Assembly: GCA_029718625.1 (NCBI GenBank)
Contig: CM056376.1
Location: 28,922,424-28,986,423, forward strand
Source of the DNA: Synaphobranchus kaupii
Taxonomy: Eukaryota > Chordata > Actinopteri > Anguilliformes > Synaphobranchidae
Direction of reading: 5' to 3'
Length of the DNA: 64,000 bases
Part shown: positions 2-63,227 of the stretch, piece after piece
Layout: each line of letters opens with the position of its first letter
Numbering within the stretch: position 1 is the stretch's first letter
Position numbers and translations under genes: made by a program
The notes under the pieces: generated by a model
The model's database searches: none
Told to the model about the DNA's origin: nothing
The model's input: the letters and a program-made list of their open reading frames with translations, nothing else

Positions 2-12249
<12,248 letters not shown>

Positions 12250-15550: not shown

Positions 15551-15716
15551 TATAGAAAATAAAATGCATGTGGTTATGTTGATGCTAAAAAAATATTACC
15601 TTTGCCCCAGTAACCAATGTTAATTAGAAAGGACTTGAATGATGACGTCTTGTTTGAAAAAGGCTTGTACTGCCGTGCATACAGTGAAAGTGAATAACCC
15701 CCCCCCAAAAAAAAAA

Positions 15717-15860
15717 ACTGCGGTCAAGCCAGCCTCCACTTCGAAAAAGACGGTCAAGCCAGCCGCCGCGAATTTATATATTTATTTAATTTATATACTA
15801 GGCATTCTACGGTGAGCGTGTAAGAATTGATTTCAAAATAAAAGTAAAGTTCTTCTAAAT
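15717..15860 (+). repeat. left unique terminal inverted repeat of giant element
   Basis: It matches 37988-38115 in reverse complement almost base for base, apart from small differences in the A/T-rich middle. It contains two direct copies of GGTCAAGCCAGCC, candidate transposase-binding sites. Confidence 0.88.
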
Positions 15861-16039
15861 TCAGATTGATATTAAAAGGAAACCTCCTGTTTTCACGGAA
15901 CCATTTCTCTTCAGAACGATAGAAGAACACAGAGTGTCACTCAGACAATCTCAGGACATTCTGATGTGGAATTTCAAATTTAAAGCCCTCTAAAATGTCA
16001 TATAGGAGCTGTTGTTCTTCTAAATTCAGATTGATATTA

Positions 16040-18048
16040 CAGTTTTTTACGATTGCTTTGACTCATTTTGCACAACAGAGTTTCAATGTGCAAAACTCTT
16101 AACACAGAATGCTATACTGCTCATTTTGGGTTCAAAATGTAATATAGCATGCAAAATAAAAATACCAGTGTCAAATCAGAGAATATTATATGCAAAAGTT
16201 TATCACAGCATCAGAACATTAGATATTTCAAACAATGAAGTTAAATCATTGCTGCATTTTCAATATACAACAGTCATCATGAAATAATGCTGCCAAACAC
16301 AAAATCCGTCTGATAAAAAAAGAGTTTCAAAGTGTTTTTTGGTCATAACGCAAAATGCTATACTCCTAATCTTGGGCTCAAAATCATATATAGCATGCAC
16401 AATAGAAACAACTGAACCAAATTAGATTGTATTTCATGCTAAAGTTTATCATAGTGTCAGAAGAGTGGATATGTTTATCGTTGAAGTTTAATTATTGGTG
16501 CATTTTCAAATACAACGGCCATTATCAAATAATGCGGTCAAACACAAAATACTTTTTACCAAAAAAGACTATGCAATGGTCATTTCCTCATAAATGCTTG
16601 AAATAATGTACAGCAAGCATCCCCTGTGATAGACTGCAGTTTTGCGCTTGTGTTTTTATGAAAGACAAACAAAATATTATATTAGATTATATGAAGTTTA
16701 ATCATTAAAGAAAAATCATACAGTAATGCAGTACTGTAAACTCAACTGTATTGTACAGTAAAAACAAAAACAACAGTAAAAGCAAAAACAGTTACAGTAA
16801 CAACAAACTTTATTGTAAAGTTAAAAAAAACTGCTTCTCGGTGCTTAAGCAGCATTTTGCCTCTCCGCTGCATTTAGCCACAGAATTTTGTCGACGTCAC
16901 ATCTGATGTCTTCGTTGGCAAGACAGCGCTGGTAAAATATTTTAGAGTGCCTTATCCACCCCTGACACTGCTGGGCTGTAATGTCCCTGAATGGCCTGAA
17001 GGAGCGTTTCCTGCTCATATGGACACCTATCGTATACCTTCCACCTGCAGGGCGAGAAAAACTCCTCGATGGGGTTCAGAAAGGGGGAGTAAGGTGGAAG
17101 GAATTGGAATCGGAACTCTGGATGGGCTGTAAACCAGTCTTGCACAGCCAATGCACGATAGAAGTTTACATTGTCCCAGACAATGATGAACACCATCTGA
17201 GCATTTGGCTGGACGAGACGGTTGTACAGCCCATCCAGAAAATGTATGAGGCGCACGGAGTTGTATGCCCCCAGCAGAGGGTCAGGCTGACCAATCAGGG
17301 ATGGATCTGTGTGGGCCTGCCCAATGGTCTCAGGGCCGGGTCTAGGCAAACTAGGCTTACCTATTACCTATTACAATACCTATTACCTATATACTGTATA
17401 TTTACTGTACATGGTTCACGACCATGACCATGACCATGACCACGACCATGACCCTGTCCTTCGTTACCAACCTCAACCTCACTGACCTGCTCCATGTTGT
17501 CAGAAACTGCCATTCAGGTTTCTAAGCAGCCTTTTATGTAGTGGTGAAGATATTATCAATTGTGTTGCAATGCTACTCACCTGGGCAAGGTTGTTGGAAG
17601 TACTGAGACATGACTACAAGCACCTGTTGAATTGATTTAGTGATCTGCATTTGTAGTAATAAACATTTGAACATTGTTGTAATATTAGGTGGCTGTATTC
17701 TGAGAATGGAGCATATGATTTAGAGTTTGGCACCTTGTATTAACAGTTTTGCACATTGTATGTCAGCATAGGATGTAGTGTCCTAAGGTAAGAATTCTGC
17801 AAGTCAGTTTAGCACTTTGCGTTAACAGTTTTACACTTTGTATGTCATCATAGGATGTAGTGTCTTAAGGTAAGAATTCTGCAAGTCAGTTTAGCACTTT
17901 GCGTTAACAGTTTTACACTTTGTATGTCAGCATAGGATGTAGTGTCTTAGAGTATGAATTTTGAAAGTCAGTTTGGCACTTTGCATTTTGAGTTTTGTAA
18001 ATTGAAATTCTGCTGTGCAAAATGAGTCAAAGCAATCGTAAAAAACTG
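16040..18048 (-). mobile_element. IS630/Tc1-mariner-type transposon nested in the left arm
   Basis: Perfect inverted ends of about 35 bp start CAGTTTTTTACGATTGCTTT, with TA on both sides (16038-16039, 18049-18050). The satellite monomer reads straight through if the insert is removed (GATATTA then AAAGG). The interior has two direct copies of a roughly 240-bp block (about 16105-16550) and three copies of a roughly 90-bp block (about 17740-18000). A decayed transposase lies on minus. Confidence 0.9.
16942..17349 (-). pseudogene. DDE transposase C-terminal fragment (IS630/Tc1-mariner)
   Basis: The open stretch contains VWDNVNFYRALAVQDW (second catalytic Asp) and LPPYSPFLNPIEEFFS (catalytic Glu, about 35 residues on). 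This is the DDE_3 type of endonuclease domain. The upstream HTH region and the first Asp are not in frame; a Gly/His-rich stretch from ACCATG repeats lies near 17405-17455. Probably inactive. Confidence 0.82.
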
Positions 18049-18915
18049 TAAAAGGAAACCGCCTGTTTTCACAAAACCATTTCACTTCAGAATGATAGAT
18101 GAACACCTCAGAGTGTCACTCAGGCAACCTCAGGACATTCTGATGTGGAATTTCAAAATTAAAGCCCTCTAAAATGTCATATAAATGCTGTGTTTCTTCT
18201 AATATTCAGATTGATATTAAAAGGAAACCGCCTGTTTTCACAAAACCATTTCACTTCAGAATGATAGATGAATACCTCAGAGTGTCACTCAGGCAACCTC
18301 AGGACATTCTGATGTGGAATTTCAAAATTAAAGCCCTCTAAAATGTCATATAAATGCTGTGTTTCTTCTATATTCAGATTGATATTAAAAGGAAACCGCC
18401 TGTTTTCACAAAACCCTTTCACTTCAGACTGATAGAGGAACACCTCAGAGTGTCACTCAGGCAATCTCAGGACATTCTGATGTGGAATTTCAAAATTAAA
18501 GCCCTCTAAAATGTCATATAAGAGCTGTGTTTCCTCTAAATTCAGATTGATATTAAAAAGAAACCTCCTGTTTTCACGGAACCATTTCTCTTCAGAATGA
18601 TAGATGAACACCTCAGAGTGTCACTCAGACAATCTCAGGACATTCTGATGTGGAATTTAAAAATTAAAGCCCTCTAAAATGTCATATAAATGCTGTGTTT
18701 CTTCTATATTCAGATTGATATTAAAAGGAAATCTCCTGTTTTCACGAAACCATTTCACTATACAATGATAGACGAACACCTCAGAGTGTCACTCAGACAA
18801 TCTCAGGACATTCTGATGTGGAATTTCAAAATTAAAGCCCTCTAAAATGTCATATAAGAGCTGTGTTTCTATATTCCGATTGATATTAAAAGGAAACTTC
18901 CTGTTTTCACAAAAT

Positions 18916-19610
18916 AATTTCAATTTATTGTTATCAACGATTTATTTATAAGATTCTCTCGTTAGACACAAAAATAATAATCAGAAGAATTTTTTATATT
19001 TTTACATCTATACATCCATCTATACTTTTTTATATGTAATGTATTTAAACTTTGAATTCACAATACACAAATGTTTTCCTATTTAGTTATTGTCATGCGG
19101 TGAGTGCGATTGCGAGGCAACGGAGAAATGCAGACAACCCACGCAGACTGGGACAGTTGAATAATTTACAGCTAAATAGTCATGTCAAGGATCTATAAAA
19201 TCACAATGTGGAAATCTCTTAGATGATTTTCAGGCTACTTTCACAAATTTCGACCTGTCCGTATTTTTCAACAAATGTTACCCACTATGTAACTACAGTA
19301 TGTGTGTTCATATAATTTGTATGAATAGTCACAATGAAGAAATTTAGTTTACTGTCAATATGTCGGTGTATCTAAATACTCAGCTTCACAGTTTACAATT
19401 TCTACTGCTTTTCATCTACAAATTCTGCTTTCACAACACCAGGAGAGCTAATGCAAATGCTACTACCTCAGAGTGTAAAGAGAATGGAACTAATATGATG
19501 ATGCAGCTTTTATCCCAGTTTAATCCAAGCCCATGTGGCCACCTCTAAACACCTAAAAGCAGCTTGCCTTGTCCTAAGATTGTCTGAGTGACAATCTGAA
19601 CTGTACTTCT
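18916..19610. other. central spacer of giant element
   Basis: About 0.7 kb of unique A/T-rich sequence between the two opposed satellite arrays. The longest open stretch (19360-19548) shows no recognisable domain, so the element looks non-autonomous. Confidence 0.7.
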
Positions 19611-22600
19611 ATCAATCTGAAGTGAAATTGGTCTTCTATCATTGTGAAGTGAACTGGTTTTGTGAAAACAGGAGGTTTCCTTTTAATATCCATCTGAATT
19701 TAGAAGAAACACAGCATTTATATGACATTTTAGAGCGCTTTAATTTTGAAATTGCACATCAGAATGTCCTGAGGTTGCCTGAGTGACACTCTGAGGTGTT
19801 CCTCTATCAGTCTGAAGTGAAATGGTTTTGTGAAAACAGGCGGTTTCCTTTTAATATCAATCTGAATTTAGAAGAAACACAGCATTTATATGACATTTTA
19901 GAGGGCTTTAATTTTGAAATTCCACATCAGAATGTCCTGAGGTTGCCTGAGTGACACTCTGAGGTGTTCTTCTATCATTGTATAGTGAAATGGTTTTGTG
20001 AAAACAGGCGGTTTCCTTTTAATATCAATCTGAATTTAGAAGAAACACAGCATTTATATGACAATTTAGAGGGCTTTAATTTTGAAATTCCACATCAGAA
20101 TGTCCTGAGGTTGCCTGAGTGACACTCTGAGGTGTTCTTCTATCATTGTATAGTGAAATGGTTTTGTGAAAACAGGCGGTTTCCTTTTAATATCAATCTG
20201 AATTTAGAAGAACAGCTCTTATATGACATTTTAGAGGGCTTTAATTTTGAAATTCCACATCAGAATGTCCTGAGGTTGCCTGAGTGACACTCTGAGGTGT
20301 TCTTCTATCATTGTATAGTGAAATGGTTTTGTGAAAACAGGCGGTTTCCTTTTAATATCAATCTGAATTTAGAAGAAACACAGCATTTATATGACATTTT
20401 AGAGGGTTTTAATTTTGAAATTCCACATCAGAATGTCCTGAGGTTGCCTGAGTGACACTATGAGGTGTTCATCTATCATTCTGAAGTGAAAGGGTTTTGT
20501 GAAAACAGGCGGTTTCCTTTTAATATCAATCTGAATATAGAAGAAACACAGCATTTATATGACATTTTAGAGGGCTTTAATTTTGAAATTCCACATCAGA
20601 ATGTCCTGAGGTTGCCTGAGTGACACTTTGAGGTGTTCATCTATCATTCTGAAGTGAAATGGTTTTGTGAAAACAGGCGGTTTCCTTTTAATATCAATCT
20701 GAATATAGAAGAAACACAGCATTTATATGACATTTTAGAGGGCTTTAATTTTGAAATTCCACATCAGAATGTCCTGAGGTTGCCTGAGTGACACTTTGAG
20801 GTGTTCATCTATCATTCTGAAGTGAAATGGTTTTGTGAAAACAGGCGGTTTCCTTTTAATATCAATCTGAATATAGAAGAAACACAGCATTTATATGACA
20901 TTTTAGAGGGCTTTAATTTTGAAATTCCACATCAGACTGTCCTGAGGTTACCTGAGTGACACTCTGAGGTGTTCATCTATCATTCTATAGTGAAATGGTT
21001 TTGTGAAAACAGGCGGTTTATTTTTAATATCAATCTGAATATAGAAGAAACACAGCATTTATATGACATTTTAGAGGGCTTTCATTTTGAAATTCCACAT
21101 CAGAATGTCCTGAGGTTGCCTGGGTGACACTCTGAGGTGTTCATCTATCATTCTGAAGTGAAATGGTTTTGTGAAAACAGGTGGTTTCCTTTTAATATCA
21201 ATCTGAATTTAGAAGAACAACAGCTCTTATATGACATTTTAGAGGGCTTTAACTTTGAAATTCCACATCAGAATGTCCTGAGGTTACCTGAGTGACACTC
21301 TGAGGTGTTCATCTATCATTGTATAGTGAAATGGTTTTGTGAAAACAGGCGGTTTCCTTTTAATATCAATCTGAATATAGAAGAAACACAGCTCTTATAT
21401 GACATTTTAGAGGGCTTTAATTTTGAAATTCCACATCAGAATGTCCTGAGATTGTCTGAGTGACACTCTGAGGTGTTCTTCTATCATTCTGAAGAGACAT
21501 GGTTCCGTGAAAACAGGTTTCCTTTTAATATCAATCTGAATTTAGAAGAACAACAGCTCTTATATGACATTTTAGAGGGCTTTAATTTTGAAATTCCACA
21601 TCAGAATGTCCTGAGGTTGCCTGAGTGACACTTTGAGGTGTTCCTCTATCAGTCTGAAGTGAAATGGTTTTGTGAAAACAGGCGGTTTCCTTTTAATATC
21701 AATCTGAATTTAGAAGAAAGACAGCATTTATATGACAATTTAGAGGGCTTTAACTTTGAAATTCCACATCAGAATGTCCTGAGGTTACCTGAGTGACACT
21801 CTGAGGTGTTCATCTATCATTCTATAGTGAAATGGTTTTGTGAAAACAGGCGGTTTCTTTTTAATATCAATCTGAATATAGAAGAAACACAGCATTTATA
21901 TTACATTTTAGAGGGCTTTAATTTTGAAATTCCACATCAGAATGTCCTGAGGTTGCCTGAGTGACACTTTGAGGTGTTCATCTATCATTCTGAAGTGAAA
22001 TGGTTTTGTGAAAACAGGCGGTTTCCTTTTAATATCAATCTGAATATAGAAGAAACACAGCATTTATATGACATTTTAGAGGGCTTTAATTTTGAAATTC
22101 CACATCAGACTGTCCTGAGGTTACCTGAGTGACACTCTGAGGTGTTCATCTATCATTCTATAGTGAAATGGTTTTGTGAAAACAGGCGGTTTCTTTTTAA
22201 TATCAATCTGAATATAGAAGAAACACAGCATTTATATGACATTTTAGAGGGCTTTCATTTTGAAATTCCACATCAGAATGTCCTGAGGTTGCCTGAGTGA
22301 CACTCTGAGGTGTTCATCTATCATTCTGAAGTGAAATGGTTTTGTGAAAACAGGTGGTTTCCTTTTAATATCAATCTGAATTTAGAAGAACAACAGCTCT
22401 TATATGACATTTTAGAGGGCTTTAACTTTGAAATTCCACATCAGAATGTCCTGAGGTTACCTGAGTGACACTCTGAGGTGTTCATCTATCATTGTATAGT
22501 GAAATGGTTTTGTGAAAACAGGCGGTTTCCTTTTAATATCAATCTGAATATAGAAGAAACACAGCTCTTATATGACATTTTAGAGGGCTTTAATTTTGAA

Positions 22601-25600
22601 ATTCCACATCAGAATGTCCTGAGATTGTCTAAGTGACACTCTGAGGTGTTCTTCTATCATTCTGAAGAGAAATGGTTCCGTGAAAACAGGTTTCCTTTTA
22701 ATATCAATCTGAATTTAGAAGAACAACAGCTCTTATATGACATTTTAGAGGGCTTTAATTTTGAAATTCCACATCAGAATGTCCTGAGGTTGCCTGAGTG
22801 ACACTTTGAGGTGTTCCTCTATCAGTCTGAAGTGAAATGGTTTTGTGAAAACAGGCGGTTTCCTTTTAATATCAATCTGAATTTAGAAGAAAGACAGCAT
22901 TTATATGACAATTTAGAGGGCTTTAATTTTGAAATTCCACATCAGACTGTCCTGAGGTTACCTGAGTGACACTCTGAGGTGTTCATCTATCATTCTATAG
23001 TGAAATGGTTTTGTGAAAACAGGCGGTTTCTTTTTAATATCAATCTGAATATAGAAGAAACACAGCATTTATATGACATTTTAGAGGGCTTTCATTTTGA
23101 AATTCCACATCAGAATGTCCTGAGGTTGCCTGAGTGACACTCTGAGGTGTTCATCTATCATTCTGAAGTGAAATGGTTTTGTGAAAACAGGCGGTTTCCT
23201 TTTAATATCAATCTGAATTTAGAAGAACAACAGCTCTTATATGACATTTTAGAGGGCTTTAACTTTGAAATTCCACATCAGAATGTCCTGAGGTTGCCTG
23301 AGTGACACTTTGAGGTGTTCCTCTATCAGTCTGAAGTGAAATGGTTTTGTGAAAACAGGCGGTTTCCTTTTAATATCAATCTGAATTTAGAAGAAAGACA
23401 GCATTTATATGACAATTTAGAGGGCTTTAATTTTGAAATTCCACATCAGAATGTCCTGAGGTTACCTGAGTGACACTCTGACTTGTTCCTCTATCATTGT
23501 ATAGTGAAATGGTTTTGTGAAAACAGGCGGTTTCCTTTTAATATCAATCTGAATATAGAAGAAACACAGCATTTATATTACATTTTAGAGGGCTTTAATT
23601 TTGAAATTCCACATCAGAATGTCCTGAGGTTGCCTGAGTGACACTTTGAGGTGTTCATCTATCATTCTGAAGTGAAATGGTTTTGTGAAAACAGGCGGTT
23701 TCCTTTTAATATCAATCTGAATATAGAAGAAACACAGCATTTATATGACATTTTAGAGGGCTTTAATTTTGAAATTCCACATCAGACTGTCCTGAGGTTA
23801 CCTGAGTGACACTCTGAGGTGTTCATCTATCATTCTATAGTGAAATGGTTTTGTGAAAACAGGCGGTTTCTTTTTAATATCAATCTGAATATAGAAGAAA
23901 CACAGCATTTATATGACATTTTAGAGGGCTTTCATTTTGAAATTCCACATCAGAATGTCCTGAGGTTGCCTGGGTGACACTCTGAGGTGTTCATCTATCA
24001 TTCTGAAGTGAAATGGTTTTGTGAAAACAGGTGGTTTCCTTTTAATATCAATCTGAATTTAGAAGAACAACAGCTCTTATATGACATTTTAGAGGGCTTT
24101 AACTTTGAAATTCCACATCAGAATGTCCTGAGGTTACCTGAGTGACACTCTGAGGTGTTCATCTATCATTGTATAGTGAAATGGTTTTGTGAAAACAGGC
24201 GGTTTCCTTTTAATATCAATCTGAATATAGAAGAAACACAGCTCTTATATGACATTTTAGAGGGCTTTAATTTTGAAATTCCACATCAGAATGTCCTGAG
24301 ATTGTCTGAGTGACACTCTGAGGTGTTCTTCTATCATTCTGAAGAGAAATGGTTCCGTGAAAACAGGTTTCCTTTTAATATCAATCTGAATTTAGAAGAA
24401 CAACAGCTCTTATATGACATTTTAGAGGGCTTTAATTTTGAAATTCCACATCAGAATGTCCTGAGGTTGCCTGAGTGACACTTTGAGGTGTTCCTCTATC
24501 AGTCTGAAGTGAAATGGTTTTGTGAAAACAGGCGGTTTCCTTTTAATATCAATCTGAATTTAGAAGAAAGACAGCATTTATATGACAATTTAGAGGGCTT
24601 TAACTTTGAAATTCCACATCAGAATGTCCTGAGGTTACCTGAGTGACACTCTGAGGTGTTCATCTATCATTCTATAGTGAAATGGTTTTGTGAAAACAGG
24701 CGGTTTCTTTTTAATATCAATCTGAATATAGAAGAAACACAGCATTTATATTACATTTTAGAGGGCTTTAATTTTGAAATTCCACATCAGAATGTCCTGA
24801 GGTTGCCTGAGTGACACTTTGAGGTGTTCATCTATCATTCTGAAGTGAAATGGTTTTGTGAAAACAGGCGGTTTCCTTTTAATATCAATCTGAATATAGA
24901 AGAAACACAGCATTTATATGACATTTTAGAGGGCTTTAACTTTGAAATTCCACATCAGAATGTCCTGAGGTTGCCTGAGTGACACTTTGAGGTGTTCCTC
25001 TATCAGTCTGAAGTGAAATGGTTTTGTGAAAACAGGCGGTTTCCTTTTAATATCAATCTGAATTTAGAAGAAAGACAGCATTTATATGACAATTTAGAGG
25101 GCTTTAATTTTGAAATTCCACATCAGAATGTCCTGAGGTTACCTGAGTGACACTCTGACTTGTTCCTCTATCATTGTATAGTGAAATGGTTTTGTGAAAA
25201 CAGGCGGTTTCCTTTTAATATCAATCTGAATATAGAAGAAACACAGCATTTATATTACATTTTAGAGGGCTTTAATTTTGAAATTCCACATCAGAATGTC
25301 CTGAGGTTGCCTGAGTGACACTTTGAGGTGTTCATCTATCATTCTGAAGTGAAATGGTTTTGTGAAAACAGGCGGTTTCCTTTTAATATCAATCTGAATA
25401 TAGAAGAAACACAGCATTTATATGACATTTTAGAGGGCTTTAATTTTGAAATTCCACATCAGACTGTCCTGAGGTTACCTGAGTGACACTCTGAGGTGTT
25501 CATCTATCATTCTATAGTGAAATGGTTTTGTGAAAACAGGCGGTTTCTTTTTAATATCAATCTGAATATAGAAGAAACACAGCATTTATATGACATTTTA

Positions 25601-28600
25601 GAGGGCTTTCATTTTGAAATTCCACATCAGAATGTCCTGAGGTTGCCTGGGTGACACTCTGAGGTGTTCATCTATCATTCTGAAGTGAAATGGTTTTGTG
25701 AAAACAGGTGGTTTCCTTTTAATATCAATCTGAATTTAGAAGAACAACAGCTCTTATATGACATTTTAGAGGGCTTTAACTTTGAAATTCCACATCAGAA
25801 TGTCCTGAGGTTACCTGAGTGACACTCTGAGGTGTTCATCTATCATTGTATAGTGAAATGGTTTTGTGAAAACAGGCGGTTTCCTTTTAATATCAATCTG
25901 AATATAGAAGAAACACAGCTCTTATATGACATTTTAGAGGGCTTTAATTTTGAAATTCCACATCAGAATGTCCTGAGATTGTCTGAGTGACACTCTGAGG
26001 TGTTCTTCTATCATTCTGAAGAGAAATGGTTCCGTGAAAACAGGTTTCCTTTTAATATCAATCTGAATTTAGAAGAACAACAGCTCTTATATGACATTTT
26101 AGAGGGCTTTAATTTTGAAATTCCACATCAGAATGTCCTGAGGTTGCCTGAGTGACACTTTGAGGTGTTCCTCTATCAGTCTGAAGTGAAATGGTTTTGT
26201 GAAAACAGGCGGTTTCCTTTTAATATCAATCTGAATTTAGAAGAAAGACAGCATTTATATGACAATTTAGAGGGCTTTAACTTTGAAATTCCACATCAGA
26301 ATGTCCTGAGGTTACCTGAGTGACACTCTGAGGTGTTCATCTATCATTGTATAGTGAAATGGTTTTGTGAAAACAGGCGGTTTCCTTTTAATATCAATCT
26401 GAATATAGAAGAAACACAGCTCTTATATGACATTTTAGAGGGCTTTAATTTTGAAATTCCACATCAGAATGTCCTGAGGTTGCCTGAGTGACACTTTGAG
26501 GTGTTCCTCTATCAGTCTGAAGTGAAATGGTTTTGTGAAAACAGGCGGTTTCCTTTTAATATCAATCTGAATATAGAAGAAACACAGCATTTATATGACA
26601 TTTTAGAGGGCTTTAATTTTGAAATTCCACATCAGACTGTCCTGAGGTTACCTGAGTGACACTCTGAGGTGTTCATCTATCATTCTATAGTGAAATGGTT
26701 TTGTGAAAACAGGCGGTTTCTTTTTAATATCAATCTGAATATAGAAGAAACACAGCATTTATATGACATTTTAGAGGGCTTTCATTTTGAAATTCCACAT
26801 CAGAATGTCCTGAGGTTGCCTGAGTGACACTCTGAGGTGTTCATCTATCATTCTGAAGTGAAATGGTTTTGTGAAAACAGGTGGTTTCCTTTTAATATCA
26901 ATCTGAATTTAGAAGAACAACAGCTCTTATATGACATTTTAGAGGGCTTTAACTTTGAAATTCCACATCAGAATGTCCTGAGGTTACCTGAGTGACACTC
27001 TGAGGTGTTCATCTATCATTGTATAGTGAAATGGTTTTGTGAAAACAGGCGGTTTCCTTTTAATATCAATCTGAATATAGAAGAAACACAGCTCTTATAT
27101 GACATTTTAGAGGGCTTTAATTTTGAAATTCCACATCAGAATGTCCTGAGATTGTCTAAGTGACACTCTGAGGTGTTCTTCTATCATTCTGAAGAGAAAT
27201 GGTTCCGTGAAAACAGGTTTCCTTTTAATATCAATCTGAATTTAGAAGAACAACAGCTCTTATATGACATTTTAGAGGGCTTTAATTTTGAAATTCCACA
27301 TCAGAATGTCCTGAGGTTGCCTGAGTGACACTTTGAGGTGTTCCTCTATCAGTCTGAAGTGAAATGGTTTTGTGAAAACAGGCGGTTTCCTTTTAATATC
27401 AATCTGAATTTAGAAGAAAGACAGCATTTATATGACAATTTAGAGGGCTTTAATTTTGAAATTCCACATCAGACTGTCCTGAGGTTACCTGAGTGACACT
27501 CTGAGGTGTTCATCTATCATTCTATAGTGAAATGGTTTTGTGAAAACAGGCGGTTTCTTTTTAATATCAATCTGAATATAGAAGAAACACAGCATTTATA
27601 TGACATTTTAGAGGGCTTTCATTTTGAAATTCCACATCAGAATGTCCTGAGGTTGCCTGAGTGACACTCTGAGGTGTTCATCTATCATTCTGAAGTGAAA
27701 TGGTTTTGTGAAAACAGGCGGTTTCCTTTTAATATCAATCTGAATTTAGAAGAACAACAGCTCTTATATGACATTTTAGAGGGCTTTAACTTTGAAATTC
27801 CACATCAGAATGTCCTGAGGTTGCCTGAGTGACACTTTGAGGTGTTCCTCTATCAGTCTGAAGTGAAATGGTTTTGTGAAAACAGGCGGTTTCCTTTTAA
27901 TATCAATCTGAATTTAGAAGAAAGACAGCATTTATATGACAATTTAGAGGGCTTTAATTTTGAAATTCCACATCAGAATGTCCTGAGGTTACCTGAGTGA
28001 CACTCTGACTTGTTCCTCTATCATTGTATAGTGAAATGGTTTTGTGAAAACAGGCGGTTTCCTTTTAATATCAATCTGAATATAGAAGAAACACAGCATT
28101 TATATTACATTTTAGAGGGCTTTAATTTTGAAATTCCACATCAGAATGTCCTGAGGTTGCCTGAGTGACACTTTGAGGTGTTCATCTATCATTCTGAAGT
28201 GAAATGGTTTTGTGAAAACAGGCGGTTTCCTTTTAATATCAATCTGAATATAGAAGAAACACAGCATTTATATGACATTTTAGAGGGCTTTAATTTTGAA
28301 ATTCCACATCAGACTGTCCTGAGGTTACCTGAGTGACACTCTGAGGTGTTCATCTATCATTCTATAGTGAAATGGTTTTGTGAAAACAGGCGGTTTCTTT
28401 TTAATATCAATCTGAATATAGAAGAAACACAGCATTTATATGACATTTTAGAGGGCTTTCATTTTGAAATTCCACATCAGAATGTCCTGAGGTTGCCTGG
28501 GTGACACTCTGAGGTGTTCATCTATCATTCTGAAGTGAAATGGTTTTGTGAAAACAGGTGGTTTCCTTTTAATATCAATCTGAATTTAGAAGAACAACAG

Positions 28601-31600
28601 CTCTTATATGACATTTTAGAGGGCTTTAACTTTGAAATTCCACATCAGAATGTCCTGAGGTTACCTGAGTGACACTCTGAGGTGTTCATCTATCATTGTA
28701 TAGTGAAATGGTTTTGTGAAAACAGGCGGTTTCCTTTTAATATCAATCTGAATATAGAAGAAACACAGCTCTTATATGACATTTTAGAGGGCTTTAATTT
28801 TGAAATTCCACATCAGAATGTCCTGAGATTGTCTGAGTGACACTCTGAGGTGTTCTTCTATCATTCTGAAGAGAAATGGTTCCGTGAAAACAGGTTTCCT
28901 TTTAATATCAATCTGAATTTAGAAGAACAACAGCTCTTATATGACATTTTAGAGGGCTTTAATTTTGAAATTCCACATCAGAATGTCCTGAGGTTGCCTG
29001 AGTGACACTTTGAGGTGTTCCTCTATCAGTCTGAAGTGAAATGGTTTTGTGAAAACAGGCGGTTTCCTTTTAATATCAATCTGAATTTAGAAGAAAGACA
29101 GCATTTATATGACAATTTAGAGGGCTTTAACTTTGAAATTCCACATCAGAATGTCCTGAGGTTACCTGAGTGACACTCTGAGGTGTTCATCTATCATTCT
29201 ATAGTGAAATGGTTTTGTGAAAACAGGCGGTTTCTTTTTAATATCAATCTGAATATAGAAGAAACACAGCATTTATATTACATTTTAGAGGGCTTTAATT
29301 TTGAAATTCCACATCAGAATGTCCTGAGGTTGCCTGAGTGACACTTTGAGGTGTTCATCTATCATTCTGAAGTGAAATGGTTTTGTGAAAACAGGCGGTT
29401 TCCTTTTAATATCAATCTGAATATAGAAGAAACACAGCATTTATATGACATTTTAGAGGGCTTTAATTTTGAAATTCCACATCAGACTGTCCTGAGGTTA
29501 CCTGAGTGACACTCTGAGGTGTTCATCTATCATTCTATAGTGAAATGGTTTTGTGAAAACAGGCGGTTTCTTTTTAATATCAATCTGAATATAGAAGAAA
29601 CACAGCATTTATATGACATTTTAGAGGGCTTTCATTTTGAAATTCCACATCAGAATGTCCTGAGGTTGCCTGAGTGACACTCTGAGGTGTTCATCTATCA
29701 TTCTGAAGTGAAATGGTTTTGTGAAAACAGGTGGTTTCCTTTTAATATCAATCTGAATTTAGAAGAACAACAGCTCTTATATGACATTTTAGAGGGCTTT
29801 AACTTTGAAATTCCACATCAGAATGTCCTGAGGTTACCTTAGTGACACTCTGAGGTGTTCATCTATCATTGTATAGTGAAATGGTTTTGTGAAAACAGGC
29901 GGTTTCCTTTTAATATCAATCTGAATATAGAAGAAACACAGCTCTTATATGACATTTTAGAGGGCTTTAATTTTGAAATTCCACATCAGAATGTCCTGAG
30001 ATTGTCTAAGTGACACTCTGAGGTGTTCTTCTATCATTCTGAAGAGAAATGGTTCCGTGAAAACAGGTTTCCTTTTAATATCAATCTGAATTTAGAAGAA
30101 CAACAGCTCTTATATGACATTTTAGAGGGCTTTAATTTTGAAATTCCACATCAGAATGTCCTGAGGTTGCCTGAGTGACACTTTGAGGTGTTCCTCTATC
30201 AGTCTGAAGTGAAATGGTTTTGTGAAAACAGGCGGTTTCCTTTTAATATCAATCTGAATTTAGAAGAAAGACAGCATTTATATGACAATTTAGAGGGCTT
30301 TAATTTTGAAATTCCACATCAGACTGTCCTGAGGTTACCTGAGTGACACTCTGAGGTGTTCATCTATCATTCTATAGTGAAATGGTTTTGTGAAAACAGG
30401 CGGTTTCTTTTTAATATCAATCTGAATATAGAAGAAACACAGCATTTATATGACATTTTAGAGGGCTTTCATTTTGAAATTCCACATCAGAATGTCCTGA
30501 GGTTGCCTGAGTGACACTCTGAGGTGTTCATCTATCATTCTGAAGTGAAATGGTTTTGTGAAAACAGGCGGTTTCCTTTTAATATCAATCTGAATTTAGA
30601 AGAACAACAGCTCTTATATGACATTTTAGAGGGCTTTAACTTTGAAATTCCACATCAGAATGTCCTAAGGTTACCTGAGTGACACTCTGAGGTGTTCATC
30701 TATCATTGTATAGTGAAATGGTTTTGTGAAAACAGGCGGTTTCCTTTTAATATCAATCTGAATATAGAAGAAACACAGCTCTTATATGACATTTTAGAGG
30801 GCTTTAATTTTGAAATTCCACATCAGAATGTCCTGAGATTGTCTGAGTGACACTCTGAGGTGTTCTTCTATCATTCTGAAGAGAAATGGTTCCGTGAAAA
30901 CAGGTTTCCTTTTAATATCAATCTGAATTTAGAAGAACAACAGCTCTTATATGACATTTTAGAGGGCTTTAATTTTGAAATTCCACATCAGAATGTCCTG
31001 AGGTTGCCTGAGTGACACTTTGAGGTGTTCCTCTATCAGTCTGAAGTGAAATGGTTTTGTGAAAACAGGCGGTTTCCTTTTAATATCAATCTGAATTTAG
31101 AAGAAAGACAGCATTTATATGACAATTTAGAGGGCTTTAATTTTGAAATTCCACATCAGAATGTCCTGAGGTTACCTGAGTGACACTCTGACTTGTTCCT
31201 CTATCATTGTATAGTGAAATGGTTTTGTGAAAACAGGCGGTTTCCTTTTAATATCAATCTGAATATAGAAGAAACACAGCATTTATATTACATTTTAGAG
31301 GGCTTTAATTTTGAAATTCCACATCAGAATGTCCTGAGGTTGCCTGAGTGACACTTTGAGGTGTTCATCTATCATTCTGAAGTGAAATGGTTTTGTGAAA
31401 ACAGGCGGTTTCCTTTTAATATCAATCTGAATATAGAAGAAACACAGCATTTATATGACATTTTAGAGGGCTTTAATTTTGAAATTCCACATCAGACTGT
31501 CCTGAGGTTACCTGAGTGACACTCTGAGGTGTTCATCTATCATTCTGTAGTGAAATGGTTTTGTGAAAACAGGCGGTTTCTTTTTAATATCAATCTGAAT

Positions 31601-34600
31601 TTAGAAGAACAACAGCTCTTATATGACATTTTAGAGGGCTTTAACTTTGAAATTCCACATCAGAATGTCCTGAGGTTACCTGAGTGACACTCTGAGGTGT
31701 TCATCTATCATTGTATAGTGAAATGGTTTTGTGAAAACAGGCGGTTTCCTTTTAATATCAATCTGAATATAGAAGAAACACAGCTCTTATATGACATTTT
31801 AGAGGGCTTTAATTTTGAAATTCCACATCAGAATGTCCTGAGATTGTCTGAGTGACACTCTGAGGTGTTCTTCTATCATTCTGAAGAGAAATGGTTCCGT
31901 GAAAACAGGTTTCCTTTTAATATCAATCTGAATTTAGAAGAACAACAGCTCTTATATGACATTTTAGAGGGCTTTAATTTTGAAATTCCACATCAGAATG
32001 TCCTGAGGTTGCCTGAGTGACACTTTGAGGTGTTCCTCTATCAGTCTGAAGTTAAATGGTTTTGTGAAAACAGGCGGTTTCCTTTTAATATCAATCTGAA
32101 TTTAGAAGAAAGACAGCATTTATATGACAATTTAGAGGGCTTTAATTTTGAAATTCCACATCAGACTGTCCTGAGGTTACCTGAGTGACACTCTGAGGTG
32201 TTCATCTATCATTCTATAGTGAAATGGTTTTGTGAAAACAGGCGGTTTCTTTTTAATATCAATCTGAATATAGAAGAAACACAGCATTTATATGACATTT
32301 TAGAGGGCTTTCATTTTGAAATTCCACATCAGAATGTCCTGAGGTTGCCTGAGTGACACTCTGAGGTGTTCATCTATCATTCTGAAGTGAAATGGTTTTG
32401 TGAAAACAGGCGGTTTCCTTTTAATATCAATCTGAATTTAGAAGAACAACAGCTCTTATATGACATTTTAGAGGGCTTTAACTTTGAAATTCCACATCAG
32501 AATGTCCTGAGGTTGCCTGAGTGACACTTTGAGGTGTTCCTCTATCAGTCTGAAGTGAAATGGTTTTGTGAAAACAGGCGGTTTCCTTTTAATATCAATC
32601 TGAATTTAGAAGAAAGACAGCATTTATATGACAATTTAGAGGGCTTTAATTTTGAAATTCCACATCAGAATGTCCTGAGGTTACCTGAGTGACACTCTGA
32701 CTTGTTCCTCTATCATTGTATAGTGAAATGGTTTTGTGAAAACAGGCGGTTTCCTTTTAATATCAATCTGAATATAGAAGAAACACAGCATTTATATTAC
32801 ATTTTAGAGGGCTTTAATTTTGAAATTCCACATCAGAATGTCCTGAGGTTGCCTGAGTGACACTTTGAGGTGTTCATCTATCATTCTGAAGTGAAATGGT
32901 TTTGTGAAAACAGGCGGTTTCCTTTTAATATCAATCTGAATATAGAAGAAACACAGCATTTATATGACATTTTAGAGGGCTTTAATTTTGAAATTCCACA
33001 TCAGACTGTCCTGAGGTTACCTGAGTGACACTCTGAGGTGTTCATCTATCATTCTATAGTGAAATGGTTTTGTGAAAACAGGCGGTTTCTTTTTAATATC
33101 AATCTGAATATAGAAGAAACACAGCATTTATATGACATTTTAGAGGGCTTTCATTTTGAAATTCCACATCAGAATGTCCTGAGGTTGCCTGGGTGACACT
33201 CTGAGGTGTTCATCTATCATTCTGAAGTGAAATGGTTTTGTGAAAACAGGTGGTTTCCTTTTAATATCAATCTGAATTTAGAAGAACAACAGCTCTTATA
33301 TGACATTTTAGAGGGCTTTAACTTTGAAATTCCACATCAGAATGTCCTGAGGTTACCTGAGTGACACTCTGAGGTGTTCATCTATCATTGTATAGTGAAA
33401 TGGTTTTGTGAAAACAGGCGGTTTCCTTTTAATATCAATCTGAATATAGAAGAAACACAGCTCTTATATGACATTTTAGAGGGCTTTAATTTTGAAATTC
33501 CACATCAGAATGTCCTGAGGTTGCCTGAGTGACACTTTGAGGTGTTCCTCTATCAGTCTGAAGTGAAATGGTTTTGTGAAAACAGGCGGTTTCCTTTTAA
33601 TATCAATCTGAATTTAGAAGAAAGACAGCATTTATATGACAATTTAGAGGGCTTTAATTTTGAAATTCCACATCAGAATGTCCTGAGGTTACCTGAGTGA
33701 CACTCTGACTTGTTCCTCTATCATTGTATAGTGAAATGGTTTTTGTGAAAACAGGCGGTTTCCTTTTAATATCAATCTGAATATAGAAGAAACACAGCAT
33801 TTATATTACATTTTAGAGGGCTTTAATTTTGAAATTCCACATCAGAATGTCCTGAGGTTGCCTGAGTGACACTTTGAGGTGTTCATCTATCATTCTGAAG
33901 TGAAATGGTTTTGTGAAAACAGGCGGTTTCCTTTTAATATCAATCTGAATATAGAAGAAACACAGCATTTATATGACATTTTAGAGGGCTTTAATTTTGA
34001 AATTCCACATCAGACTGTCCTGAGGTTACCTGAGTGACACTCTGAGGTGTTCATCTATCATTCTATAGTGAAATGGTTTTGTGAAAACAGGCGGTTTCCT
34101 TTTAATATCAATCTGAATATAGAAGAAACACAGCATTTATATTACATTTTAGAGGGCTTTAATTTTGAAATTCCACATCAGAATGTCCTGAGGTTGCCTG
34201 AGTGACACTTTGAGGTGTTCATCTATCATTCTGAAGTGAAATGGTTTTGTGAAAAACAGGCGGTTTCCTTTTAATATCAATCTGAATATAGAAGAAACAC
34301 AGCATTTATATGACATTTTAGAGGGCTTTAATTTTGAAATTCCACATCAGACTGTCCTGAGGTTACCTGAGTGACACTCTGAGGTGTTCATCTATCATTC
34401 TATAGTGAAATGGTTTTGTGAAAACAGGCGGTTTCTTTTTAATATCAATCTGAATATAGAAGAAACACAGCATTTATATGACATTTTAGAGGGCTTTCAT
34501 TTTGAAATTCCACATCAGAATGTCCTGAGGTTGCCTGGGTGACACTCTGAGGTGTTCATCTATCATTCTGAAGTGAAATGGTTTTGTGAAAACAGGTGGT

Positions 34601-37600
34601 TTCCTTTTAATATCAATCTGAATTTAGAAGAACAACAGCTCTTATATGACATTTTAGAGGGCTTTAACTTTGAAATTCCACATCAGAATGTCCTGAGGTT
34701 ACCTGAGTGACACTCTGAGGTGTTCATCTATCTTTGTATAGTGAAATGGTTTTGTGAAAACAGGCGGTTTCCTTTTAATATCAATCTGAATATAGAAGAA
34801 ACACAGCTCTTATATGACATTTTTAGAGGGCTTTAATTTGAAATTCCACATCAGAATGTCCTGAGATTGTCTGAGTGACACTCTGAGGTGTTCTTCTATC
34901 ATTCTGAAGAGAAATGGTTCCGTGAAAACAGGTTTCCTTTTAATATCAATCTGAATTTAGAAGAACAACAGCTCTTATATGACATTTTAGAGGGCTTTAA
35001 TTTTGAAATTCCACATCAGAATGTCCTGAGGTTGCCTGAGTGACACTTTGAGGTGTTCCTCTATCAGTCTGAAGTGAAATGGTTTTGTGAAAACAGGCGG
35101 TTTCCTTTTAATATCAATCTGAATTTAGAAGAAAGACAGCATTTATATGACAATTTAGAGGGCTTTAACTTTGAAATTCCACATCAGAATGTCCTGAGGT
35201 TACCTGAGTGACACTCTGAGGTGTTCATCTATCATTCTATAGTGAAATGGTTTTGTGAAAACAGGCGGTTTCTTTTTAATATCAATCTGAATATAGAAGA
35301 AACACAGCATTTATATTACATTTTAGAGGGCTTTAATTTTGAAATTCCACATCAGAATGTCCTGAGGTTGCCTGAGTGACACTTTGAGGTGTTCATCTAT
35401 CATTCTGAAGTGAAATTTGGTTTTGTGAAAACAGGCGGTTTCCTTTTAATATCAATCTGAATATAGAAGAAACACAGCATTTATATGACATTTTAGAGGG
35501 CTTTAATTTTGAAATTCCACATCAGACTGTCCTGAGGTTACCTGAGTGACACTCTGAGGTGTTCATCTATCATTCTATAGTGAAATGGTTTTGTGAAAAC
35601 AGGCGGTTTCTTTTTAATATCAATCTGAATATAGAAGAAACACAGCATTTATATGACATTTTAGAGGGCTTTCATTTTGAAATTCCACATCAGAATGTCC
35701 TGAGGTTGCCTGAGTGACACTCTGAGGTGTTCATCTATCATTCTGAAGTGAAATGGTTTTGTGAAAACAGGTGGTTTCCTTTTAATATCAATCTGAATTT
35801 AGAAGAACAACAGCTCTTATATGACATTTTAGAGGGCTTTAACTTTGAAATTCCACATCAGAATGTCCTGAGGTTACCTGAGTGACACTCTGAGGTGTTC
35901 ATCTATCATTGTATAGTGAAATGGTTTTGTGAAAACAGGCGGTTTCCTTTTAATATCAATCTGAATATAGAAGAAACACAGCTCTTATATGACATTTTAG
36001 AGGGCTTTAATTTTGAAATTCCACATCAGAATGTCCTGAGGTTGCCTGAGTGACACTTTGAGGTGTTCCTCTATCAGTCTGAAGTGAAATGGTTTTGTGA
36101 AAACAGGCGGTTTCCTTTTAATATCAATCTGAATTTAGAAGAAAGACAGCATTTATATGACAATTTAGAGGGCTTTAATTTTGAAATTCCACATCAGAAT
36201 GTCCTGAGGTTACCTGAGTGACACTCTGACTTGTTCCTCTATCATTGTATAGTGAAATGGTTTTGTGAAAACAGGCGGTTTCCTTTTAATATCAATCTGA
36301 ATATAGAAGAAACACAGCATTTATATTACATTTTAGAGGGCTTTAATTTTGAAATTCCACATCAGAATGTCCTGAGGTTGCCTGAGTGACACTTTGAGGT
36401 GTTCATCTATCATTCTGAAGTGAAATGGTTTTGTGAAAACAGGCGGTTTCCTTTTAATATCAATCTGAATATAGAAGAAACACAGCATTTATATGACATT
36501 TTAGAGGGCTTTAATTTTGAAATTCCACATCAGACTGTCCTGAGGTTACCTGAGTGACACTCTGAGGTGTTCATCTATCATTCTATAGTGAAATGGTTTT
36601 GTGAAAACAGGCGGTTTCTTTTTAATATCAATCTGAATATAGAAGAAACACAGCATTTATATGACATTTTAGAGGGCTTTCATTTTGAAATTCCACATCA
36701 GAATGTCCTGAGGTTGCCTGAGTGACACTCTGAGGTGTTCATCTATCATTCTGAAGTGAAATGGTTTTGTGAAAACAGGTGGTTTCCTTTTAATATCAAT
36801 CTGAATTTAGAAGAACAACAGCTCTTATATGACATTTTAGAGGGCTTTAACTTTGAAATTCCACATCAGAATGTCCTGAGGTTACCTGAGTGACACTCTG
36901 AGGTGTTCATCTATCATTGTATAGTGAAATGGTTTTGTGAAAACAGGCGGTTTCCTTTTAATATCAATCTGAATATAGAAGAAACACAGCTCTTATATGA
37001 CATTTTAGAGGGCTTTAATTTTGAAATTCCACATCAGAATGTCCTGAGGTTGCCTGAGTGACACTTTGAGGTGTTCCTCTATCAGTCTGAAGTGAAATGG
37101 TTTTGTGAAAACAGGCGGTTTCCTTTTAATATCAATCTGAATTTAGAAGAAAGACAGCATTTATATGACAATTTAGAGGGCTTTAATTTTGAAATTCCAC
37201 ATCAGAATGTCCTGAGGTTACCTGAGTGACACTCTGACTTGTTCCTCTATCATTGTATAGTGAAATGGTTTTGTGAAAACAGGCGGTTTCCTTTTAATAT
37301 CAATCTGAATATAGAAGAAACACAGCATTTATATTACATTTTAGAGGGCTTTAATTTTGAAATTCCACATCAGAATGTCCTGAGGTTGCCTGAGTGACAC
37401 TTTGAGGTGTTCATCTATCATTCTGAAGTGAAATGGTTTTGTGAAAACAGGCGGTTTCCTTTTAATATCAATCTGAATATAGAAGAAACACAGCATTTAT
37501 ATGACATTTTAGAGGGCTTTAATTTTGAAATTCCACATCAGACTGTCCTGAGGTTACCTGAGTGACACTCTGAGGTGTTCATCTATCATTCTATAGTGAA

Positions 37601-37987
37601 ATGGTTTTGTGAAAACAGGCGGTTTCTTTTTAATATCAATCTGAATTTAGAAGAACAACAGCTCTTATATGACATTTTAGAGGGCTTTAACTTTGAAATT
37701 CCACATCAGAATGTCCTGAGGTTACCTGAGTGACACTCTGAGGTGTTCATCTATCATTGTATAGTGAAATGGTTTGTGAAAACAGGCGGTTTCCTTTTAA
37801 TATCAATCTGAATATAGAAGAAACACAGCTCTTATATGACATTTTAGAGGGCTTTAATTTTGAAATTCCACATCAGAATGTCCTGAGATTGTCTGAGTGA
37901 CACTCTGAGGTGTTCTTCTATCATTCTGAAGAGAAATGGTTCCGTGAAAACAGGTTCCCTTTTAATATCAATCTGAATTTAGAAGAA
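19611..37987 (-). repeat. right satellite arm, about 109 monomers of about 168 bp, with higher-order repeats
   Basis: Monomers are inverted relative to the left arm and close to head-to-tail identical (AAAACAGGCGGTTTCCTTTT, ATATCAATCTGAAT, GAGGGCTTTAATTTTGAAAT). The repeat distance between sister positions is 168 bp, with 165-bp variants. Variant monomers recur in blocks. The GAAGAGAAATGGTTCCG type (GAAGAGACATGG in the first) lies at 21491, 22664, 24341, 26018, 27191, 28868, 30041, 30878, 31883, 34906 and 37928. Those spacings equal 7, 10, 10, 7, 10, 7, 5, 6, 18 and 18 monomers. Each monomer contains stop codons, so the array is not coding. Confidence 0.93.
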
Positions 37988-38115
37988 CTTTACTTTTATT
38001 TTGAAATCAATTCTTACACGCTCACCGTAGAATGCCTAGCATATTGCGAACCAAAAAAATTCGCGGCGGCTGGCTTGACCGTCTTTTTCAAAGTGGAGGC
38101 TGGCTTGACCGCAGT
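37988..38115 (-). repeat. right unique terminal inverted repeat of giant element
   Basis: Reverse complement of the left end; it ends GGCTGGCTTGACCGCAGT before eight A. A short open stretch crosses it but has no recognisable domain. Confidence 0.88.
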
Positions 38116-38159
38116 AAAAAAAAGTAGGCTAATCCCTGGTAAATAGTTCTGGGGTGCGT

Positions 38160-62727: not shown

Positions 62728-63227
62728 NNNNNNNNNNNNNNNNNNNNNNNNNNNNNNNNNNNNNNNNNNNNNNNNNNNNNNNNNNNNNNNNNNNNNNNNN
62801 NNNNNNNNNNNNNNNNNNNNNNNNNNNNNNNNNNNNNNNNNNNNNNNNNNNNNNNNNNNNNNNNNNNNNNNNNNNNNNNNNNNNNNNNNNNNNNNNNNNN
62901 NNNNNNNNNNNNNNNNNNNNNNNNNNNNNNNNNNNNNNNNNNNNNNNNNNNNNNNNNNNNNNNNNNNNNNNNNNNNNNNNNNNNNNNNNNNNNNNNNNNN
63001 NNNNNNNNNNNNNNNNNNNNNNNNNNNNNNNNNNNNNNNNNNNNNNNNNNNNNNNNNNNNNNNNNNNNNNNNNNNNNNNNNNNNNNNNNNNNNNNNNNNN
63101 NNNNNNNNNNNNNNNNNNNNNNNNNNNNNNNNNNNNNNNNNNNNNNNNNNNNNNNNNNNNNNNNNNNNNNNNNNNNNNNNNNNNNNNNNNNNNNNNNNNN
63201 NNNNNNNNNNNNNNNNNNNNNNNNNNN
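62728..63227. other. assembly gap of 500 N
   Basis: Exactly 500 N, a conventional placeholder, so true size is unknown. The lrrc43 candidate and the L1 element on either side may be further apart than shown. Confidence 0.98.

What the first reader, a model, noticed from the sequence alone, without database searches (positions are those of the whole stretch)
15717..38115. Giant 22.4-kb fold-back element whose arms are a satellite array
Nearly identical unique ends (ACTGCGGTCAAGCCAGCC) enclose two opposed tandem arrays of one roughly 168-bp monomer around a 0.7-kb spacer. Fold-back elements with tandem-repeat arms are known (FB, Galileo), but one with about 109 monomers in one arm and higher-order structure looks more like a centromere-type satellite packaged in a transposon. 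It may be a source of new satellite DNA in this fish.
Basis: partly seen in the sequence, partly recalled or inferred. Interest (0 to 1): 0.9.

Follow-up and report, generated by a model that had tools for sequence, protein, structure and literature searches.

The report
Jumping fold-back element with satellite arms
A 22-kb jumping DNA element in what is probably a fish chromosome has one arm made of about 109 copies of a 168-base repeat, and sister copies elsewhere in the genome show that such elements jump with their repeat arrays on board, one way for satellite DNA to spread between chromosomes.

Summary
Window 15717-38115 is one copy of a dispersed family of non-autonomous fold-back DNA transposons: 130-bp ends enclose opposed arrays of a 168-bp monomer, 6 left and 109 right, around a 0.64-kb middle. 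The 24-bp end has 273 matches; among 100 listed, 32 of 34 neighbours under 60 kb apart are inverted pairs, 1.3-31.6 kb long. Of 28 copies with both ends read, 17 have exact 8-bp target duplications and 4 match at 7 of 8; none of 756 mismatched flank pairs reaches 7. Four sister copies of 20-27 kb on four contigs share middle stretches 99.7-99.9% identical, and three of their 5' arms match almost monomer for monomer, so arrays travelled with the element. The window's long arm grew in place by block duplication. The middle of most copies keeps a relic exon with half a PHD finger, lost from the window. A cousin family has diverged 171-bp repeats at the same place. No transposase was found. A centromeric role is not supported: about 7,200 monomers, 0.08% of the assembly. 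Closest precedent: Tetris of Drosophila virilis.

The parts
15709..15716 (.). left 8-bp target duplication, AAAAAAAA (lies in a poly-A run, so weak taken alone)
15717..15849 (+). left terminal domain (TERM): ACTGCGGTCAAGCCAGCC tip, its core CGGTCAAGCCAGCC at +5 and again at +35
   Evidence: the 24-mer of this end has 273 matches genome-wide
15850..16039 (-). left satellite arm, first piece
16040..18048 (.). nested Tc1/IS630-type element inserted in the left arm, TA on each side; TIRs identical over the first 35 bases (CAGTTTTTTACGATTGC...)
   Evidence: broken DDE_3 transposase frame at 16942-17349 minus strand, Pfam E 6e-12
18051..18925 (-). left satellite arm, second piece (left arm about 6.3 monomers in all)
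18926..19569 (.). middle (M) domain; near 19036-19043 the site where 10 other copies carry a Tc1-like insert is empty; near 19189-19192 a 116-bp stretch with the PHD exon relic is missing
19570..37987 (+). right satellite arm, about 109 monomers of 168 bp with irregular higher-order blocks
37988..38115 (-). right terminal domain (TERM), inverted copy of the left one
38116..38123 (.). right 8-bp target duplication, AAAAAAAA

Best explanation
It is a non-autonomous fold-back DNA transposon. SHOWN: near-identical inverted tips at many loci, 8-bp target duplications, opposed satellite arms behind the tips in every copy read end to end, and transposition of 20-27 kb copies with their arrays as ordered cargo. 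INFERRED: a cut-and-paste transposase made elsewhere binds the repeated CGGTCAAGCCAGCC core in the tips, excises the element and inserts it with an 8-bp stagger. INFERRED: the arms arose from a subterminal repeat about 170 bp long and change length by whole monomers through unequal exchange or slippage, each arm largely on its own since the last jump. In the window copy the right arm reached 109 monomers after this lineage split from the other copies read, while the left arm stayed at 6.
For: Pairing: 130 forward and 143 reverse end matches, 0 in the reversed-pattern control; of the 100 listed places, 32 of 34 neighbours under 60 kb are +/- pairs. Target duplications: 17 of 28 copies 8/8, 4 of 28 7/8, 7 of 28 at most 6/8; control 0 of 756 reach 7. 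Mobility of large copies: C18 (24.4 kb), C3 (20.3 kb) and C1b (24.0 kb) each have an exact and different 8-bp duplication; the best matching stretches of the sisters' middles, 2.8-7.2 kb, are 99.75-99.93% identical (of C1b only half the middle was compared). Of 7 flank pieces compared all against all with megablast, one pair matched, over 114 bp. Arms as cargo: the 5' arm of C18 is 99.9-100% identical to that of C3 and C1b over the first 800 bp, while the 5' and 3' arms of C18 are 95.7%. Monomer by monomer, C18 and C3 5' arms align at 29 positions, 23 with no difference, separated by whole-monomer gaps of 3 and 10. In-place growth in the window: nearest monomer inside the arm differs at 0.41 sites on average, nearest outside at 3.84. 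Chronology: the Tc1-like insert in M is absent from the window, L009, L042, L043 and L044 and present in ten others.
Against: No transposase or autonomous copy was found, so the mobilising enzyme is inferred. 7 of 28 copies lack a good duplication, C19 and C1_77.65 almost entirely (1 of 8), so some loci may be recombinants. The window's own duplication is eight A in a poly-A run. The C2 sister aligns less cleanly: 5 of 8 flank bases, and single monomer pairs with up to 10 differences to C18. Against separate evolution of the arms: over all copies read, monomers of the other arm of the same element are as close (8.65 differences) as those of the same arm (8.86), and closer than other elements (10.9), so the two arms share a recent origin or exchange sequence at times. 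Array lengths rest on one assembly; no reads were seen.
Confidence: 0.9

Rival explanations
1. The copies spread as segmental duplications or by ectopic recombination, not by transposition.
For: 7 of 28 copies have at most 6 of 8 matching flank bases, two of them 1 of 8, as expected of recombinants.
Against: Sister copies have different flanks, three of four with different exact 8-bp duplications; 17 of 28 exact against 0 of 756 in the control.
Confidence: 0.05
2. A host satellite came first, and transposon ends later landed at its borders or captured it.
For: The monomer is far more abundant than the ends (7,178 against 273 matches).
Against: All 22 copies read from end to end have the two arrays in the same opposed orientation behind the same tips. 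The cousin locus L060/L063 has its own diverged 171-bp repeats behind the same tip. The monomer shares a 14-of-16 motif with TERM (1 of 300 shuffles). About 26 monomers per end accounts for the genome count.
Confidence: 0.08
3. The long array is an assembly artefact.
For: Only one assembly, no reads; arrays are a known source of error.
Against: No N inside the element; 20 variant classes in an irregular order; sister arrays on other contigs agree monomer by monomer over long runs.
Confidence: 0.05
4. The mobilising transposase is of the Mutator/Rehavkus kind; the PHD exon relic in M is the 3' end of its gene.
For: Rehavkus is described with a PHD finger and a minisatellite before the 3' TIR (PMC6446971 passages). 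M in 14 of 16 copies holds an exon-like relic; Pfam scores the L011 version as PHD, E 3e-6, 27.5 bits against a cut-off of 24; the L042 version stays below it, 20.8 bits.
Against: Rehavkus is listed with 9-bp target duplications and in arthropods and annelids only; here the duplication is 8 bp. No DDE or MULE domain of the element's own was found; the exon could be a captured host exon (the PDB chain most like it is KMT2D).
Confidence: 0.3
5. The mobilising transposase belongs to another superfamily with 8-bp target duplications (P/THAP9; hAT, Merlin, KDZ/Zisupton named from recall).
For: 8-bp duplications fit (zebrafish Pdre2 also has 8 bp, PMC10983969 passages); Galileo of the P superfamily is fold-back-like (PMC3573991 passages).
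Against: The Pdre2 tip CATACCTGTCAAC is unlike ACTGCGGTCAAGCC. Family searches for KDZ and P did not complete.
Confidence: 0.5

Closest known systems
Tetris (Drosophila virilis fold-back element, PMC4079207; part 1 of 6 of the text and 12 passages seen)
   Same: Apparently non-autonomous; outer flanking domain, then tandem repeats of about 220 bp, then a middle domain; 8-9 bp target duplications (9-10 in rearranged copies); repeats amplified in satellite-like arrays of up to 66; differing repeat number between alleles; a 37-bp stretch shared by flanking domain and repeat.
   Different: No sequence relation tested. Here a larger genome of an unnamed host, a 168-bp monomer, 109 monomers in one arm of an element with both ends present, and sister copies showing whole arrays moved by transposition.
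Galileo (P superfamily, PMC3573991; abstract and passages seen)
   Same: Long internally repetitive TIRs; repeat number differs between the two TIRs of one copy; longest TIRs are in non-autonomous copies.
   Different: TIRs up to about 1.26 kb with at most three 210-bp repeats in the passages seen, and 7-bp flanking sequences; here arms to 18 kb and 8 bp.
Rehavkus / Mutator-like elements (PMC6446971; passages seen)
   Same: PHD finger and a minisatellite near the end are features of Rehavkus; a PHD half-exon and tandem arrays occur here.
   Different: 9-bp duplications and invertebrate hosts there; 8 bp and no transposase found here.
miDNA4 and Xstir MITEs of Xenopus (review PMC12628747; passages seen)
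   Same: Vertebrate inverted-repeat elements linked with tandem arrays of variable copy number.
   Different: MITEs (miDNA4 is Tc1/mariner) with an internal repeat; here two opposed arrays form the arms.

Membership tests
fold-back (FB-like) DNA transposons, as a structural class | long inverted arms with internal tandem repeats around a middle domain | tested here: met
   six short copies (L026, L037-L041) lack the middle domain
fold-back (FB-like) DNA transposons, as a structural class | dispersed copies with target site duplications | tested here: met
   8 bp, 17 of 28 exact, 4 of 28 at 7/8; control 0 of 756
Tetris family | sequence homology to Tetris | not tested
   Tetris sequence not at hand; same architecture only
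Rehavkus/MULE | 9-bp target duplication (8-11 for MULEs) | tested here: inconclusive
   8 bp: not the 9 bp listed for Rehavkus, within the MULE range
Rehavkus/MULE | MULE-type DDE transposase, in Rehavkus with PHD finger | tested here: inconclusive
   only a PHD half-exon relic found, no transposase; no MULE family search was run
P/THAP9 superfamily | 8-bp target duplication | tested here: met
P/THAP9 superfamily | THAP/P-type transposase sharing the tips | not tested
   family search not answered
Tc1/mariner (for the element itself) | TA target duplication | tested here: not met
   8-bp duplications. Tc1-type transposases in M belong to nested inserts
classical centromeric satellite | high abundance in long arrays at centromeres | tested here: inconclusive
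   7,178 monomer matches, about 1.2 Mb of 1,503 Mb, speaks against; centromere positions, unassembled DNA and the strand excess are open
classical centromeric satellite | CENP-A binding / in situ signal | not testable with these tools
   none

The most novel reading that the evidence does not exclude
An old lineage of fold-back transposons keeps a repeat of about 170 bp behind its tips as a working part, for example a multivalent transposase-binding or nucleosome-phasing array. It exports satellite arrays of tens of monomers by transposition, and at least one array has escaped to grow much longer, which would explain the excess of reverse-strand monomers.
Probability: 0.3. Interest if true: 0.8.

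Novelty: new variant of a known kind. Interest (0 to 1): 0.62.

Why it matters
How satellite DNA gets from one chromosome to another is an old question. Here one genome holds sister copies on different contigs, three of the four with their own exact target duplication, in which tandem arrays of tens of monomers can be aligned monomer by monomer. That makes array transport and array length change directly measurable: which blocks were gained or lost since the jump, and how far the two arms of one element change on their own.

Tried and rejected
Autonomous partner: (a) the Tc1-type frames in the middle of L012, L015 and L028 looked like the element's own transposase at first; they sit in nested inserts and the element makes 8-bp duplications, so they were rejected. 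(b) The PHD exon gave 98 matches. One weaker one (C16, 74%) was opened and proved to be another interrupted family copy; the three matches at 46-49% were not opened. (c) The tip with another base after position 18 gave 7 places: five were fetched, of which one is a family copy (L062), two are the cousin family (L059, L060), and two (L058, L061) I take for the zinc knuckle of a gypsy-type gag (read by eye), a chance match; the other two (C1:50776212, C5:69622583) were not fetched but lie within 1.6 kb of listed PHD exon copies.

The strand excess of monomers (2,376 forward, 4,802 reverse) was not explained; the DNA search meant to locate long arrays did not complete and was given up. The extent of the cousin family was not measured, since its pattern search did not complete.

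Papers: searches (15 listed of 537; 15 of 19; 15 of 138; 12 of 76; 12 of 43) looked for fold-back or TIR elements with satellites, the last two in fish; apart from Tetris, Galileo and the cases in reviews, the titles and abstract starts listed showed no like case. The library holds open papers only, and the unlisted papers were not seen. One fish paper that came up (PMC5638112) mentions fold-back only in a reference.

Rows dropped: 28 of 636 units cut at the anchor were left out of the monomer tables because they fell outside 150-190 bp; one of these is the 337-bp double unit of the window right arm (107 of 108 used). Elements with only one end fetched (such as L024, L028/C16, L057, L062) and the end-to-end pair in L056 are not in the count of 28. 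L026 was left out of the arm tables because its middle is nearly gone. Of the 273 end matches only the first 100, all without mismatch and on contigs C1-C6, were listed and used. One script failed for a file name, and two paper look-ups for a two-letter term.

Full report
CHECK OF THE OBSERVATION. The left end 15717-16039 matches 38115-37798 inverted at 91.4%. Tandem Repeats Finder gives period 168 with 109.4 copies for 19635-37987. A 26-mer of the monomer, calibrated at 681 matches in 694 monomer lengths of 31 arms or arm parts, counts 109 in the right arm, 6 in the left and 0 outside the element. There is no gap in the element; the window's only run of N is 62728-63227. The left arm is cut by a 2,009-bp insert with TA on both sides, TIRs identical over the first 35 bases and a broken DDE_3 frame of 135 codons.

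A DISPERSED FAMILY. The window lies in a 1.50-Gb, 94-contig genome, at 28.92-28.99 Mb of a 145-Mb contig. A first search with 201 bases of the left end gave 53 matches, with 40 of 549 candidates scored. The 24-mer of the end has 130 forward and 143 reverse matches with up to 2 mismatches and none in the reversed control. The first 100 are listed. Among them 34 neighbours lie under 60 kb apart, of which 32 are in the +/- order of a complete element, 1 is -/+ and 1 is -/-. The 32 pairs are 1,341 to 31,619 bp long, median 7.5 kb. Twenty-two copies were read from end to end (the window, L009-L013, L020, L026, L027, L037-L044, C19, C4b, C18, C3, C1b). In 22 of 22 the tips enclose satellite in minus sense on the left and plus sense on the right, with arms from about 0.5 to 109 monomers. 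Sixteen of them have the M domain between the arms; five short ones (L037-L041) show none and L026 has 75 bp there. In L038 and L041-L043 the first monomer begins 420-550 bp from the tip, in L044 1.27 kb, instead of about 130 bp; I take these for older forms.

TARGET DUPLICATIONS. For the 28 copies with both ends fetched, the 8 bases outside each end agree at 8 of 8 in 17, 7 of 8 in 4, and 6 or fewer in 7 (L009, L011, L038, C19, C2, C1_77.65, C4_55.8). Among 756 pairings of the left flank of one copy with the right flank of another, none reaches 7. Exact agreement at the other lengths tried (5, 6, 7, 9, 10) is seen in at most one of 28. The window's own duplication is AAAAAAAA in a poly-A run and says little alone.

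THE ARRAYS TRAVEL. Four copies on contigs C18, C3, C2 and C1 are sisters: the best matching stretches of their middles, which hold nested inserts, are 99.75-99.93% identical over 2.8-7.2 kb (of C1b only half the middle was compared). Three have exact and different duplications (ctttttag, aaattggg, gcccctgc); C2 has 5 of 8. Their 5' arms are 98.4-100% identical over the outer 800 bp and 98.9-99.9% over the inner 800 bp, whereas 5' and 3' arms of one element are 95.6-95.7% (outer, C18 and C3) and 93.8-94.3% (inner, all four). Aligned by monomers, C18 and C3 5' arms pair at 29 places with 23 exact, separated by one gap of 3 and one of 10 monomers; C18 and C1b pair at 15 places, 13 exact, with gaps of 9 and 15. 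C18 and C2 pair less cleanly, with several short gaps and single pairs of 3, 4 and 10 differences; the 3' arms show long exact runs and also pairs of up to 9 differences. The 5' arms hold 39, 32, 36 and 15 monomers (C18, C3, C2, C1b). So arrays of this size moved as an ordered cassette, and their lengths then changed by whole blocks. Since the last jump the two arms kept their own identity. Over all copies read, though, a monomer of the other arm of the same element is as close (8.65 differences) as one of the same arm (8.86), against 10.9 for other elements, and the two arms of L009 are 97.0% alike in their outer 800 bp; so arms share a recent origin, or exchange sequence, in some copies.

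GROWTH IN PLACE. In the window's right arm the nearest monomer inside the arm differs at 0.41 sites on average and the nearest outside the arm at 3.84; for the 69-monomer arm of C19 the figures are 0.57 and 4.8. The window arm has 20 variant classes at one difference, with colinear runs of up to 17 monomers; 200 order shuffles reach at most 5. This is the pattern of repeated block duplication by unequal exchange or slippage. Which of the two is not shown.

THE MIDDLE. M of 14 of 16 copies examined (11 of 13 in one set, and L042, L043, L044) holds, on the strand opposite to the spacer sense used here, a splice-acceptor-like TTTTATAG or near variant followed by IQCDKCERWFHEQCL(D/G)MDTEDLEQAREDSWN(Y/C)C(L/V)CA, with a stop after it in all but L043 and small changes in L009, L020, L024 and L042-L044. 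Pfam scores the L011 version as the second half of a PHD finger (E 3e-6, 27.5 bits, cut-off 24) and the L042 version below the cut-off (20.8 bits). The genome has 98 matches, three of them at 46-49%. The window lost it in a 116-bp deletion, and L026 lost nearly all of M. I take M for the 3' end of a gene left in an internally deleted element. Whether that gene was the transposon's own or a captured host exon is open; the best PDB match is the PHD finger of KMT2D. Ten copies (L010-L013, L020, L024, L027, L028, C19, C4b) carry a Tc1-like insert, in L020 and L027 partly lost, in M at one shared point; five (window, L009, L042, L043, L044) lack it there. Since copies with long outer domains are among the five, the insert probably came later and the window belongs to a lineage without it.

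A COUSIN FAMILY. Two loci share the tip ACTGCGGTCAAGCCAGCC but go on with another sequence. One of them (L060 with L063) has, behind the tip, diverged repeats of period 171 that align to the window monomer at 71-83%; of the other (L059) only 511 bp were read. The repeat behind the tip thus seems older than this family. TERM and monomer share a 16-base stretch with 14 matches, GATTTCAAAATAAAAG against AATTTCAAAATTAAAG, reached by 1 of 300 shuffles of single bases. In Tetris too a 37-bp stretch is shared by outer domain and repeat. I infer that the monomer began as a subterminal repeat of the transposon.

SATELLITE OR NOT. The assembly holds 2,376 forward and 4,802 reverse monomer matches and none in the control, about 7,200 monomers or 1.2 Mb, 0.08%. 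Divided by 273 ends this is 26 per end, near the 22 per arm of the arms read, so the elements can account for most. The excess of 2,426 on one strand is not explained; one or a few long one-way arrays would do it. On contigs C1-C4, 33 of 52 loci of the listed ends lie in the middle third, 21 of 27 single ends and 12 of 25 pairs, which would fit pile-up near centromeres if these chromosomes are metacentric; centromere positions are unknown.

WHAT IT WORKS LIKE AND WHAT IT IS. It works like a fold-back DNA transposon moved by a transposase supplied in trans. It is filed as a fold-back element by structure only. It is not filed under any superfamily: the 8-bp duplication fits several, the listed 9 bp of Rehavkus is not met, and no transposase was seen. 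The distance from Tetris is one of scale, host and proof of array transport, so I rate it a new variant of a known kind.

Noticed in passing
right flanks of L011, L042, C2 (L045), C4b (L019), L038, C1_77.65 (L047); Counted by eye: in 6 of the 11 copies without an exact 8-bp duplication the right flank reads 5-6 bases and then ACTG, the element's own tip letters; in 0 of 17 exact copies. It looks like a footprint of a lost neighbour or a failed event.
   Followed up: partly
L056 (C6:34940900-34941400): Two elements stand end to end with only ATTGCT between their tips, shorter than one target duplication.
   Followed up: no
genome-wide: Twice as many monomers on the reverse as on the forward strand of the contigs (4,802 against 2,376).
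   Followed up: partly
L060 with L063, L059; A cousin family with the same 18-bp tip; one locus has its own diverged 171-bp repeats.
   Followed up: partly
L012, L028, L015, L017/L018, L024: Nested inserts inside the middle domain: Tc1-type elements with frames of about 340 codons, a LINE frame with reverse transcriptase, and a gypsy-type retrotransposon (by eye from the frames); described only.
   Followed up: partly
L036 about 1816-5465: The left arm of copy C1b is interrupted by a 3.6-kb insert whose two ends look by eye like inverted copies of each other.
   Followed up: no
window 256-309 and 45130-45184: Two UnaL2 LINE 3' elements (Rfam).
   Followed up: no
window about 42900-44000, minus strand: A GC-rich stretch that reads by eye like a single-exon glycosyltransferase gene; not tested.
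   Followed up: no
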